DNA of 64,000 bases from Agromyces cavernae. Lineage in GTDB: Bacteria > Actinomycetota > Actinomycetes > Actinomycetales > Microbacteriaceae. The number at the start of each line of letters is the position of its first letter. Within the stretch, counting starts at the first letter, position 1. The position numbers and the translations under genes were made by a program. The stretch spans positions 930,001 through 994,000 of the forward strand of contig NZ_JAJNMP010000001.1 in the NCBI RefSeq assembly GCF_021044935.1, written 5' to 3'. This document shows positions 59,383 through 64,000 of the stretch, piece by piece. The notes under the pieces were generated by a model. The model saw nothing but the letters and a program-made list of their open reading frames with translations, searched no databases and was not told where the DNA came from.

Positions 59383-59524
59383 GACGACCACCTCTCCACA
59401 GGTCGAACACGCGATATAACGCAAACCTACGCGCACTGACGGCCGAGCGTCAGGGCGTAGACGAAACTCGCAGCTTTCGTACCGCCGGATGTTCGCTGGC
59501 CGCAGTACGACAGAGGCGAGTATC

Positions 59525-62500
59525 GTGACGCCCGTGGGGGTGCCGTACTTCCTCCCAGCCGCTGACCTGTTGCCGTACTGGCCTCACGACCTGCTGGCGC
59601 CGAGCGACGTGGGGATGCTCGGAAGGGTCAGCCAGCTGGTTGGAGTCACCGATTTCGAGCTCGTCGAATACGAGGGCGAGCTCGGCGTCGTGGGTACCCT
59701 TGCGCTCTGGGACGAACTCGTGCTCGACCTCGTGGTCGTCGAGGGCATGGCCCTCGTGCTCGGCCAGCCGGGCCCGAACCTGTCGGCCTTCCCGTTCGAG
59801 ATCGACTTCGGTCCTGCGTCGGGCGAGGTCGAGGGTGGCCTCGCCGAACAGGCGCTCGACATCTTCCTCAAGGGGCGGCCGGGGCCGTACCGACTCGTGC
59901 TGCCGGAGGTCGACCTCGGCCTGAGGTTCGCGCCGGACGACCTGCCGCCGATGCGACCGAAGGATGCCGGCGACCTCGGGAAGGGCTTCGAGCCCGACCC
60001 GACGCGCACGGCGACGCAACTCACCTTCCGCACCGCGCTCGTGATCGACACCGAGGACGGGGTGGACTTCGCGGCGCTCGGCGACCTCGACCTCCCGTAC
60101 GCGCAGATCGGCTCATCGGGAGTCGTCATCGCGGCGCAGGACCTCGTGCTCCGGCTGTCGGATGCGCAGCCGCTCCCCGACGCGATCGACCCCGCCGAGT
60201 TCGACCTCGAGGACGACTGGAAGGGCGTGTACCTCCGCACGGCGGAGGTGTTCAACCTGAACACGCTCGTCGACTCGCTGCCCGAGCGGATCGAGCTCGA
60301 GCGGTGGTTCATCGGCAACGGCGGCGTCACGGGCACGGCGACCGCGATCATGGACCTCGATCCCGACATGTCGGCGCAGAGCTTCGCCGTGCGCTCGTAC
60401 CGGCTGGCGTTCCGTCAGGGCGAGCTCGTCCAGGGCCTCGTCCAGGCCGCCGTGAAGCTGCCGTTCTTCGACGAGCGGGTCGTGTACCTCGACCTCGAGA
60501 TCACGAACGACCCGGGCCTCGACTTCCCCGAGTCGGTCGGGTTCATGGGCTCGATCGCCGGCGTCCAGCCGACCGGGCCCGGCGCGCCCCCGCGCCTCGA
60601 CGAGCTCGAGGTGCTGACGGTCAAGGAGCACGACGACTCGGTGCCGCCGGGCCAGGAACGGCTCTACCTCCGCCTCGGCGTGACGAAGTTCGGGGTCAGC
60701 GCGAAGCCCGACCAGGGCCGAGCGGGCACCGACTACCCGAAGGACACCCGGTTCTGGGACCTCATCCTCGACGGGCGCGTCGAGATCGGCCCCGCCGCGA
60801 CGGTGGCCGAGGCCGCGTTCGGCGGGGAGTTCACCGACCTCCGACTGCAGGTGGCTCCGGACTTCCGCTTCATCCTGCCGAGCGGGTTGTGGCTCGCCCT
60901 GAACGAGGCCGCGCGGACGTGGCTCGCCGCGTTCCCCGTGCAGATCTCGCGCGTCGGGTTCGGGTCGGAGGGGCCCGAGGACTGGATCGGGATGGACGCC
61001 TCCGTCGACCTCGGGCGCGGCATCGGCCCCGCGGCATCCGTCAAGGGCCTCCGCGTCTACTACGGCGGACCGTCGGGCACGCGCCTCGCGTTCGACGGCA
61101 TCGAGGTCGAGCTGCACCGGGCGGGTTTCGACGCGCACGGGTTCGTCTCGATGACGACGGGCAGTGATCCCGACGGCATCGCCGACCCGGCCGACCGCAT
61201 CTTCCGTGGCGACGTCACGCTCGCGATCGCGAGCGGCGTCGGCGTGAAGCTGCAGGGGTCCCTCCTGTTCGGCACGAAGGACGGCACGCGGTTCGGCTTC
61301 GTCGCCCTCGACGCGGAGTTCGGCAGCGGCATCCCCGTGTTCTCGTCCGTCTCCTGGTTCGGGGCGGCGCTGCTCGCGGGCGTGAACGTGGCGCCCGACA
61401 AGGCCCTGACCGGCGACCGGGGCGACGACTTCTCGTGGTACGAGCACTGGTACGTCCCGGCGCCGGGCCCGCACTCGGTGCTGAACGCGCGGAAGTGGGT
61501 GCCGGCCGAGGACGCGTGGGCTGCCGGCGCCGGCGTCACGATCGGATCGAGCGATGGCAAGGCGTGGAGCCTGCGCGCCCTGCTGGCGGTCACCGCACCC
61601 GGTCCGGTGGTCTTCATCGAAGGACGCCTCCGGCTCCTGAAGACGCGTGAGCCGCACAAGGGCCCGCCGCGCTCGACGACGATCCGGGGGCTTGCGGCCC
61701 TCGACTGGGACCAGGGCGACTTCCTCGTGGCGCTCGAGTTCGACTACAAGCTCCCCGAGTCGGGTCTGCTGCTCGACGTCGACGCGGCCGGCGAGGTCTT
61801 CTACAGCAGCCGGCCCCGCGACTGGCACGTCGCCATCGGATGGCCCGAGCCGGTGAGCCGCCGCGTCCGCGCCAGGGCGTTGCGCCTGCTCGACTGGGAC
61901 GCGTACCTCGTCGTGAGCGGCCGCGACCTCGAGCTCGCCGACCGCGTGTTCCCCGGCACGGCGGTCGCGATCGGCTACCGCACCGGCATCGACAAGCGCG
62001 GCAAGTGGGGCCCGGTGCGCGGCGTGCTCGCGCTGTGGATCGCCGGCGACCTCGCACTCTCGGTGCGCCCCGTCTACTTCCTCGCGGAGGTCTCGCTGCA
62101 GGGCGAGGCGAGCATCAAGGTCTTCGGGATCGGGTTCGAGCTCCTGCTCGACGCCCTGCTCGCGCTCGAGGCGCCGGTCGGTGACGACGACGAGTACTTC
62201 GGCGGCAAGGTGCGCATCAAGGTCGGCCTGCCGTGGCCGCTGCCCGACATCTCGAAGGAGATCCCGATCGAGTGGGGCGACGCCAGCGGGATGCCTCCGC
62301 CGATCACGCCGCTCGTGGACGGCGCGAGCGTCAGCCCGGGCTACAGCGTCGTGGGCGAGCGGTTCTACGAGCGCGAGACGTCGATGGTCGCGAACGTGTC
62401 GATGCCGCTCGACGGCCGCGTCGCGATCACGTTCCAGCGTCCGATGCGCTCGACGTGGGCGGGGGCGCCGACCCCGGTCGACCTCGCGCATCCCGATCGC

Positions 62501-64000
62501 GTCGGCGAGGTGTACTACCGGTACACGCTCGTCGCGGTGCGAGTGCAGGTCACCCCGGCGGCGGGCTCCCCGCATCCCGCGACCGAGGACCTCTTCGGCG
62601 AGTGGACCGTGGGCCCGGGTGACGCGAACGGCCCGCGGGCCGAGAGCCTCGTGCTGTGGGGTCTCTCGCCGTTCCCGGCCGCGGGCAACCTCGCGTGGCC
62701 GGGACGCACCGAGCGCCGCTCCTGGGCGGACCTGTTCTTCGACGACTACGGCGGATGGCCCTGCGGGACACTGCCCCCGCTCGAGCGGTGCCTCGACTTC
62801 GACGATGTCCCGCTCGGCGTCGTCGACCCCGAGCTGCGCTACCAGCCGGATCCCGCCATCGGCGCGGTCGTCTTCACGCCGTGGCCCGACCTGTCGCGCG
62901 ACCCGGCGCTCCAGGGCATCGACGTCGTGCAGGTGCCGCTTGCCATCATCGCGGCGGGCGGCGCGCAGGAGGCCGACCATGTGCTGCGCCTTGCGCGGAC
63001 GGCGATCCTGGGCGGCGAGGACGGCAGCGACGCGACCTCGGGGCCGGTCGCCGGCGGCGCCGTGACCTGGGCCGTCGCCGTCGACCTGCAGCCCTGCGTG
63101 CGAGCGCGCGGGCGCGTCGAGCACGACAAGGACCTCACGGTGCTCGTCGTCGAGGCGTTCGACGGGAGCGCGGTGGTGGCGACCGTCATCGAGGACGGCC
63201 CGACGTTCGAGATCACGTCCGACGTACAGCCGTTCCACCGCGTGGTCATCCGGGTGGAGGCGCGCGGCGACCCGCAGCGGCCGCTCCGATCCGTCCCGGT
63301 GCTCTCCCGCTTCTGCTACACGACCGTCGGCGCGATGCGGGACGACGAGGAGGCGCGCGAGCAGCGGCTGCACTGGCTGCACGTGCTCGGCCCGCTCACC
63401 GTCGACCAGCCCGAGACCGACACCGACCGCTTCGGCGCGCACCTCGTGCACGAGCCCCACGCCGCGTACCGCATCGAGTTGGACATCCGGACCGAGCGCG
63501 CCCAGGCGCTCGACGGCACCTGGACCGACGACGGGACGGCGACCGAGGTCCTCACCGTCGCGACGGGCGGCGCGCCCGCCGACCTCTCGCCGTACGTGGC
63601 CTCGATCGCGCCGGGCGACGGCGACCGGCCCTGGTACGCCGACTACGATCTGCGGATCACCTATGGCCAGCCGTACGTCGAGGCCATGTACCAGAAGGCG
63701 GGCGGCCTGCTCGTGGCGGACCTCTTCACCGCCGACGGCCGACACGTCGAGCCCGAGGTCGAGCGCCGGCGCACCGTGACGCCCGCGATCACCGGCGAGA
63801 CCGCCGTCCTCGTGGAGCGGCTGCAGACCGCTGCGTGCGTGGGCGTCGACCTCGACACCATCGCGGGCTTCGACGAAACGATCTACCGGACGCGCCTGGC
63901 GACGTCGACCGCCTACGAGGTGCGCGTGAGCGGCGGCGGACTGCCGGCGCCGGTCTACCGCTGGAACTTCGTCACGAGCCGGTACCGCACCTTCGCCGAG
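59525..64000 (+). CDS. Giant beta-rich protein of unknown function (3' end outside window)
   Basis: At least 1492 residues; the frame is open from the GTG at 59525 to base 64000 with no stop. Start has GAGG 8 bp upstream; GTG at 59534 is an alternative. No signal peptide or membrane segment is seen. The sequence is acidic, Gly/Asp/Leu-rich, with alternating hydrophobic residues typical of repeated beta strands: WFIGNGGVTGTATA (about 264), DGTRFGFVALDAEFGSG (about 595), and ALLAVTAPGPVVFIEGRLRL and ALDWDQGDFLVALEFDYKLP (about 690-745). The end reads YRWNFVTSRYRTFAE. It recalls large DUF6603-like proteins, but this is a memory-based guess. Divergent from the pspA pair. Confidence 0.85.
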   Translation, partial: MTPVGVPYFLPAADLLPYWPHDLLAPSDVGMLGRVSQLVGVTDFELVEYEGELGVVGTLALWDELVLDLVVVEGMALVLGQPGPNLSAFPFEIDFGPASGEVEGGLAEQALDIFLKGRPGPYRLVLPEVDLGLRFAPDDLPPMRPKDAGDLGKGFEPDPTRTATQLTFRTALVIDTEDGVDFAALGDLDLPYAQIGSSGVVIAAQDLVLRLSDAQPLPDAIDPAEFDLEDDWKGVYLRTAEVFNLNTLVDSLPERIELERWFIGNGGVTGTATAIMDLDPDMSAQSFAVRSYRLAFRQGELVQGLVQAAVKLPFFDERVVYLDLEITNDPGLDFPESVGFMGSIAGVQPTGPGAPPRLDELEVLTVKEHDDSVPPGQERLYLRLGVTKFGVSAKPDQGRAGTDYPKDTRFWDLILDGRVEIGPAATVAEAAFGGEFTDLRLQVAPDFRFILPSGLWLALNEAARTWLAAFPVQISRVGFGSEGPEDWIGMDASVDLGRGIGPAASVKGLRVYYGGPSGTRLAFDGIEVELHRAGFDAHGFVSMTTGSDPDGIADPADRIFRGDVTLAIASGVGVKLQGSLLFGTKDGTRFGFVALDAEFGSGIPVFSSVSWFGAALLAGVNVAPDKALTGDRGDDFSWYEHWYVPAPGPHSVLNARKWVPAEDAWAAGAGVTIGSSDGKAWSLRALLAVTAPGPVVFIEGRLRLLKTREPHKGPPRSTTIRGLAALDWDQGDFLVALEFDYKLPESGLLLDVDAAGEVFYSSRPRDWHVAIGWPEPVSRRVRARALRLLDWDAYLVVSGRDLELADRVFPGTAVAIGYRTGIDKRGKWGPVRGVLALWIAGDLALSVRPVYFLAEVSLQGEASIKVFGIGFELLLDALLALEAPVGDDDEYFGGKVRIKVGLPWPLPDISKEIPIEWGDASGMPPPITPLVDGASVSPGYSVVGERFYERETSMVANVSMPLDGRVAITFQRPMRSTWAGAPTPVDLAHPDRVGEVYYRYTLVAVRVQVTPAAGSPHPATEDLFGEWTVGPGDANGPRAESLVLWGLSPFPAAGNLAWPGRTERRSWADLFFDDYGGWPCGTLPPLERCLDFDDVPLGVVDPELRYQPDPAIGAVVFTPWPDLSRDPALQGIDVVQVPLAIIAAGGAQEADHVLRLARTAILGGEDGSDATSGPVAGGAVTWAVAVDLQPCVRARGRVEHDKDLTVLVVEAFDGSAVVATVIEDGPTFEITSDVQPFHRVVIRVEARGDPQRPLRSVPVLSRFCYTTVGAMRDDEEAREQRLHWLHVLGPLTVDQPETDTDRFGAHLVHEPHAAYRIELDIRTERAQALDGTWTDDGTATEVLTVATGGAPADLSPYVASIAPGDGDRPWYADYDLRITYGQPYVEAMYQKAGGLLVADLFTADGRHVEPEVERRRTVTPAITGETAVLVERLQTAACVGVDLDTIAGFDETIYRTRLATSTAYEVRVSGGGLPAPVYRWNFVTSRYRTFAE

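What the first reader, a model, noticed from the sequence alone, without database searches (positions are those of the whole stretch)
59525..64000. Unassigned giant beta-rich protein at the right edge
At least 1492 residues without a stop, signal or membrane segment, and no recognisable enzyme motif. Repeating beta-strand units and the end YRWNFVTSRYRTFAE recall large DUF6603-like proteins, some of which I associate, without certainty, with phage-tail-like injection clusters. The genes right of the window will decide whether this is the first gene of such a cluster or of a new system.
Basis: partly seen in the sequence, partly recalled or inferred. Interest (0 to 1): 0.65.

Follow-up and report, generated by a model that had tools for sequence, protein, structure and literature searches.

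The report
Giant-protein cassette with exchangeable lipase gene
The giant protein is the first gene of a compact, mobile three-gene cassette, found in distantly related bacteria, that couples a huge beta-rich protein and a fibronectin-like partner to an exchangeable enzyme gene, often of phospholipase D type, and whose function is unknown.

Summary
The ORF is real: 1692 aa (GTG 59525, stop 603 bp beyond the window), no signal peptide-like start, no Pfam match. It opens a tight three-gene operon: giant DUF6603-like protein, fibronectin-like protein (1210 aa), phospholipase D-like enzyme (978 aa, both HxK pairs). The DUF6603 link is remote: a 27%-identical homologue passes PF20248, and profile comparison gives 95.7% against 0.2% for two controls. 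In 16 strong loci (Actinomycetota, Alpha- and Betaproteobacteria, Acidobacteriota) a fibronectin-like gene adjoins the giant; strict leave-out profiles confirm it in 11, BLAST links the other 5. The third gene varies: PLD 5, PLD with eroded motifs 4, SGNH-like by motif 2, unidentified 2, none recognised 3. The cassette is inserted beside tRNA-Phe, is absent from 59 same-genus genomes, and lies just outside a neighbouring integrative element. No injection cluster was seen in the 48 kb to the right. In Acidobacteriota carriers more often have contractile-sheath genes (6 of 9 against 4 of 41), rarely nearby. Best reading (40%): a scaffold complex carrying an exchangeable membrane-attacking enzyme. 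Defence, lipid handling and injection cargo remain possible. Structure predictions failed (mean pLDDT 31 and 37).

The parts
59411..59455 (.). Stretch upstream of the left neighbour gene, shared with the empty site of relative G012; the left end of the insertion lies between about 59455 and 59525
   Evidence: Compared by eye in the sequences printed
59525..64000 (+). Gene 1 of the cassette: giant DUF6603-like beta-rich protein, 1692 aa, of which 1492 lie in the window. The rest of the cassette lies beyond the right edge: gene 1 ends at G000:C2:994603; gene 2 (fibronectin-like, 1210 aa) C2:994605-998237 (+); gene 3 (phospholipase D-like, 978 aa, HxK at 573 and HxKxxxxD at 829) C2:998250-1001186 (+); 33-nt tRNA-Phe copy, taken as the left end of the neighbouring integrative element, C2:1001207-1001239
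   Evidence: Gene; homology; PLD; tRNA copy

Best explanation
A mobile cassette that makes a scaffold complex armed with an exchangeable enzyme. Shown: gene 1 (giant DUF6603-like) and a gene 2-like fibronectin-type gene are neighbours in all 16 strong loci, while the gene beside them changes; where it is recognisable it is a phospholipase D-type protein (9 loci, 4 with eroded motifs) or, by motif only, an SGNH-like hydrolase of unknown substrate (2 loci). Inferred: the two large proteins form one particle or shell, made in the cytoplasm without a signal peptide, that holds the enzyme and, through the lectin-like or propeller modules grafted onto some of the giants, aims it at a foreign surface, where the enzyme cuts membrane lipids: in effect a toxin complex against competitors or eukaryotic partners, set free by lysis or an unknown route. 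That the proteins bind each other, leave the cell, or kill anything is not shown.
For: Operon with gaps of 1 and 12 bp. Gene 2 homology: with each sequence and its close relatives left out of the profile, 11 of 16 were found at E<=5e-11 and 0 of 205 decoy frames matched. Third gene: PLD with two HxK pairs in 5 of 16 (window, Sporichthyaceae, two Mycetohabitans, G1141); PLD-like eroded in 4 (R. tropici, G1159, G1215, G1218); GDS, GGND and DxxH motifs in 2 (G833, G1088). Binding-type modules: 3-keto-disaccharide hydrolase/LamG-like over cut-off in L016 and L039, propellers over cut-off in L017, the former below cut-off in two Mycetohabitans. Sporadic and mobile: absent from 59 of 59 same-genus genomes, on plasmids near transposase or integrase genes, cross-phylum kinship (Sporichthyaceae giant 45% identical to that of acidobacterium G1088, 27% to the window's).
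Against: No immunity gene, export signal or delivery apparatus is in the cassette. Gene 2 homology failed the strict leave-out test in 5 of 16 (P. aminophilus, G1136, G1159, G1215, G1218); these are linked only by BLAST to other members. Four of nine PLD-type partners have lost catalytic residues; five of 16 loci have no recognised enzyme. The two SGNH-like proteins have no Pfam match. The window's own giant shows no lectin module. No usable structure. Distant acidobacterial relatives start with what look like signal peptides, pointing to an envelope role for that branch.
Confidence: 0.4

Rival explanations
1. An intracellular anti-phage defence system: the giants sense infection and release a membrane-cutting phospholipase that kills the infected cell.
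For: Sporadic cassette in a tRNA-Phe insertion site, directly beside an element carrying AriAB-like and NACHT genes; PLD-like proteins occur in defence systems such as DISARM (weak DrmC matches).
Against: No PADLOC match for genes 1 and 2 and only weak ones for gene 3; lectin-like modules are odd for a cytoplasmic sensor; the cassette lies outside the defence-bearing element; several partners are catalytically eroded.
Confidence: 0.2
2. An envelope or extracellular lipid-handling complex: the giant binds or moves lipids and the enzyme remodels them, for nutrition or envelope maintenance.
For: Amphipathic strand pattern; signal peptide-like starts in distant acidobacterial members (by eye); a weak OmpA match in the R. 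tropici giant, below cut-off (E 0.002).
Against: No signal peptide-like start in the window's three proteins; mobility and patchiness are unusual for maintenance genes; the lipid-binding hints are non-significant or from a low-confidence model.
Confidence: 0.2
3. An accessory or cargo module of contractile injection systems encoded elsewhere in the genome.
For: Sheath family PF17482 in 6 of 9 strong acidobacterial carriers against 4 of 41 non-carriers (Fisher p 0.0009; at 4.4 Mb or more 6 of 8 against 3 of 22, p 0.003); around the sheaths of G833, G1215 and G1088 I saw further tail-like genes, judged by eye from sequence ends; annotated cluster on the M. endofungorum megaplasmid; a sheath-like gene about 5 kb from the cassette in G1218.
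Against: No injection gene recognised inside the cassettes; weak carriers 1 of 8; none in three carrier plasmids (R. tropici, M. rhizoxinica pBRH02, A. oryzae; not whole genomes) nor in the Sporichthyaceae MAG; the window's genome has one sheath-like gene without visible partners in 40 kb, and 5 of 5 cassette-free same-genus genomes tested have a sheath match too; giants of 1600-2900 aa seem too large for the tube (judgement).
Confidence: 0.15

Closest known systems
DUF6603 (Pfam PF20248): members annotated in Streptomyces, Nocardia, Rhizobium and haloarchaeal plasmids
   Same: Remote homology over about 400 columns; also in giant-protein gene rows on plasmids; function unknown
   Different: Those members have other partners (VCBS, BGTF, lamin-tail, protease, unnamed genes); the window protein does not reach the family cut-off
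Phospholipase D superfamily (plant PLD alpha 1, human PLD1/2)
   Same: Two HxK pairs; best solved relatives are phospholipases D
   Different: First motif lacks the Asp; about 500 extra N-terminal residues; operon with two giants
Extracellular contractile injection systems
   Same: Genome-level co-occurrence of sheath genes in Acidobacteriota
   Different: No structural gene recognised in the cassette; no cluster seen around the one sheath-like gene of the window's genome
Streptomyces sp. NBC_01724 plasmid locus
   Same: A DUF6603 gene over cut-off within about 10 kb of Tle1-like phospholipase and PLD genes
   Different: Shorter DUF6603 protein (782 aa); the enzyme genes are on the opposite strand and not in one operon

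Membership tests
DUF6603 (PF20248) | Score over the curated cut-off of 27 bits | tested here: not met
   Window protein: no Pfam match at E<=1; the genome search puts no PF20248 match at the locus even at E<=10. Among homologues: L016 39.4 bits, met; L039 18.4, not met; L017 and M. endofungorum no match
DUF6603 (PF20248) | Profile-profile homology to annotated members | tested here: met
   hhalign 95.7%, 400 columns, against seven annotated members, one of them confirmed with Pfam here; controls against the fibronectin-like and PLD alignments 0.2% each
Phospholipase D superfamily (gene 3) | PLDc profile and two HxK(x)4D motifs | tested here: met
   PF13091 34.7 and PF00614 34 bits, over cut-off; both HxK present, the Asp only in the second
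SGNH hydrolase (third gene of G833 and G1088) | Family profile plus catalytic motifs | tested here: inconclusive
   GDS, GGND and DxxH present (motif meaning recalled); no Pfam match
Extracellular contractile injection system | Sheath, tube, spike, baseplate and AAA-ATPase genes in one cluster | tested here: not met
   Only one PF17482 sheath match in the genome, on another contig, with no partners noticed in the 40 kb read; tube, spike and ATPase families were not searched genome-wide
Adhesin or secreted surface protein | Signal peptide or anchor, or an adhesin family | tested here: not met
   N-terminal hydropathy; no Pfam family. No dedicated signal-peptide program was run
Tc toxin complex | TcA/TcB/TcC domains (recalled: SpvB, RHS) | tested here: not met
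   No such Pfam match in genes 1-3
Known anti-phage defence systems | PADLOC profile match of the core genes | tested here: not met
   Genes 1 and 2: 0 families; gene 3: only weak DrmC matches

The most novel reading that the evidence does not exclude
A bacterial counterpart of the large lipid-carrier proteins (apolipoprotein B, vitellogenin): the giant DUF6603-like protein uses amphipathic beta-sheets to extract or hold lipids and hands them to a clipped-on, exchangeable lipolytic enzyme, forming a mobile lipid-attack particle. The hints are only leads: the top Foldseek rows for a poor model include ApoB-100 and vitellogenin among many beta-barrels (best E 0.003, TM 0.17), a non-significant match to a lipid-binding-type protein (E 0.73), strand alternation and the PLD-type partner.
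Probability: 0.1. Interest if true: 0.9.

Novelty: categorically new. Interest (0 to 1): 0.62.

Why it matters
It gives an uncharacterised giant-protein family a conserved partner and a chemistry to test. A core pair with an exchangeable third gene, found across phyla and on plasmids, looks like a weapon or delivery module; the defence and phage profile libraries searched here hold no match for genes 1 and 2 beyond weak ones. 'Categorically new' rates the gene set, which met none of the known systems tested; the mechanism is not shown. Full-text searches for DUF6603 and PF20248 in the held open-licence library found no paper, nor did the combinations.

Tried and rejected
Structure prediction of residues 1-959 and 452-932 with three rows gave mean pLDDT 31.5 and 36.6; only about the first 80 residues of the second are moderately confident. 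Foldseek on it gave no match at E<=0.001, so it serves only as a lead. The genome-contig scan gave two loci; viral contigs and phage records none; plasmid search with gene 2 none. Plasmid search with gene 3 gave 169 records, 20 listed; I looked at the surroundings of three (H15, H16, H17), and DUF6603 was nearby only in H17.

Rejected: that the cassette is cargo of the neighbouring integrative element (the tRNA-Phe copy lies between them); that the giant is the first gene of an injection cluster at this locus. Not settled: third genes of P. aminophilus (only one side read; the other runs over the record start), G973, G1260, G1136 and Azospirillum.

Rows dropped: NZ_CP132742 and NZ_CP062177 (second records of M. 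endofungorum and M. rhizoxinica) and the nine weak acidobacterial hits (E 2e-14 to 6e-4: G852, G866, G943, G947, G949, G952, G980, G1117, G1130) are not among the 16; eight of the nine (not G952) are given separately in the sheath test. Of the 41 controls, 20 were without a match at E<=0.001 and 21 only at E<=1e-20. I chose the control genomes from listed non-carriers, partly for size, and made no correction for kinship, so the p-values are indicative.

Full report
Observation. The frame described is there and is a gene. It runs from GTG 59525 to the right edge and ends 603 bp further on, 1692 aa. GC at codon position 3 is 0.95, with AGAGG upstream of the start. No signal peptide-like start and no clear membrane segment by hydropathy, no Pfam family for the whole protein, no NCBIfam family for the window part.

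Locus. Two co-directional genes follow with gaps of 1 and 12 bp: a 1210-aa protein whose C-terminus resembles fibronectin type III (E 5e-7 to a stretch of exoglucanase CbhB, far below that model's cut-off, E 0.058 to an engineered FN3; no Pfam match) and a 978-aa phospholipase D-like protein (PF13091 and PF00614 over cut-off; closest solved structures are phospholipases D). Its HxK pairs stand at 573 and 829; the first lacks the usual Asp. Twenty bases after the third gene stands a 33-nt copy of the 3' end of tRNA-Phe; the intact tRNA-Phe lies about 17 kb further right beside an integrase gene. So an integrative element (relaxase, AriAB-like, NACHT) sits right of the cassette and does not contain it. 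In the same-genus genome G012 the left neighbour gene and tRNA-Phe are about half a kilobase apart with no gene noticed between, so cassette and element both look like insertions at this site. Counting the window's own genome each time, the giant was found in 1 of 100 relatives (0 of 59 others of the genus), 3 of 394 genomes of the class (one a weak C-terminal match) and 1 of 396 in a sample of the phylum.

Relatives. A plasmid search found Mycetohabitans and Rhizobium homologues; others came from genome scans and a plasmid search with the Mycetohabitans giant. I count 16 strong loci: window, Sporichthyaceae MAG (L016), M. endofungorum, M. rhizoxinica, R. tropici, Azospirillum oryzae, Paracoccus aminophilus, and nine Acidobacteriota. 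In all 16 a large fibronectin-like gene adjoins the giant. How firm its homology is differs: when each sequence and its close relatives were left out of the profile, 11 of 16 were still found (E<=5e-11), with 0 of 205 decoy frames; five were not (P. aminophilus, G1136, G1159, G1215, G1218). G1159, G1215 and G1218 match the R. tropici protein in BLAST (25-27% over about 1150 aa for the two complete ones), P. aminophilus and G1136 match single members with about 50 bits. A signature like LRWxxxxxLGFPxxGFxLW marks the N-terminus: a simple pattern found it in 9 of 15 sequences; one of the 15 (Sporichthyaceae) lacks its N-terminus. Gene order is permuted: giant, fibronectin-like, PLD-type in the window and R. 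tropici; fibronectin-like, PLD, giant in Mycetohabitans and Sporichthyaceae. Third gene: PLD with both HxK pairs 5, PLD-like eroded 4, SGNH-like by motif 2, unidentified protein 2, none recognised 3. The two SGNH-like genes keep GDS, GGND and DxxH but have no Pfam match. Kinship crosses phyla: the Sporichthyaceae giant is 45% identical to that of acidobacterium G1088 and 27% to the window's.

DUF6603. The window protein fails the PF20248 cut-off, but L016 passes it (39.4 bits), and profile comparison with seven proteins annotated as DUF6603 gives 95.7% over 400 columns, against 0.2% for two unrelated alignments from the same cassette. The plasmid annotation names the M. endofungorum homologue a DUF6603 protein, though PF20248 did not match it here. 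Annotated members stand beside other giant proteins on plasmids of actinomycetes, rhizobia and haloarchaea.

Injection systems. None was recognised in the cassette or seen among the genes called up to 48 kb right of the window (by eye; selected genes scanned). Genome-wide, PF17482 sheath genes occur in 6 of 9 strong acidobacterial carriers and in 4 of 41 non-carriers (0 of 19, 4 of 22); Fisher p 0.0009, and p 0.003 among genomes of 4.4 Mb or more. Weak carriers: 1 of 8; including them the figures are 7 of 17 against 4 of 41, p 0.01. The window's genome has one sheath match in a 410-aa gene among ordinary genes, and 5 of 5 same-genus genomes without the cassette have a sheath match too (surroundings not read), so it says nothing about the cassette. 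M. endofungorum has an annotated cluster about 58 kb away on the same megaplasmid. I read this as a lead, not a demonstrated link. In a 2024 paper on toxins of these systems (PMC11297309; passages seen), 88% of known toxins lie within ten genes of the cluster, unlike here.

Mechanism. A steady pair with a changing, often lipid-attacking third gene and, in some members, lectin-like or propeller modules best fits a scaffold that carries and aims an exchangeable enzyme. Shown: gene content, adjacency, motif conservation, mobility. Inferred: complex formation, release, target, killing. Against: eroded enzymes in 4 loci, no recognised enzyme in 5, no immunity or export gene, no usable structure. 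Rivals are defence, lipid handling, and injection cargo. The boldest reading, a lipid-carrier giant like apolipoprotein B, rests on low-confidence leads.

Literature. DUF6603 and PF20248 have no paper in the held library; two searches returned none, one paper on HEPN proteins (listing only) and two on injection systems (listing, plus passages of PMC11297309).

Noticed in passing
L007:407-14122 and left of it (window-scale 71207-88122, right of the window): Integrative element in tRNA-Phe, about 17 kb, with a TrwC-type relaxase, an AriAB-like gene (PADLOC AriAB E 4e-62), a NACHT protein of 1122 aa and a tyrosine integrase.
   Followed up: partly
L120, G000:C4:142825-144057: Sheath-like gene of 410 aa among ordinary genes; sheath matches also in all five same-genus genomes tested.
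   Followed up: partly
L018 (third gene of R. tropici), L098:4407-7766, L100:8024-11386 (-), L099: Large PLD-like partners of about 1100 aa whose HxK motifs are eroded although the frames are open: possibly an enzyme turned structural protein.
   Followed up: partly
L041, L044, L045, L047: Distant acidobacterial DUF6603-like and fibronectin-like gene neighbours whose proteins start with signal peptide-like sequences by eye.
   Followed up: no
L056:32794-44068: Streptomyces plasmid with a DUF6603 gene over cut-off near a Tle1-like phospholipase and a PLD gene.
   Followed up: no
L017:7241-8200: A gene of up to 319 aa without Pfam match stands between the fibronectin-like gene and the SGNH-like gene; in G1088 similar-looking sequence appears fused to the SGNH-like protein (by eye).
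   Followed up: no
L080-L085: The outer side of the PspA-like gene pair carries different genes in the six same-genus genomes read, and tRNA-Phe is near it in two of them.
   Followed up: partly
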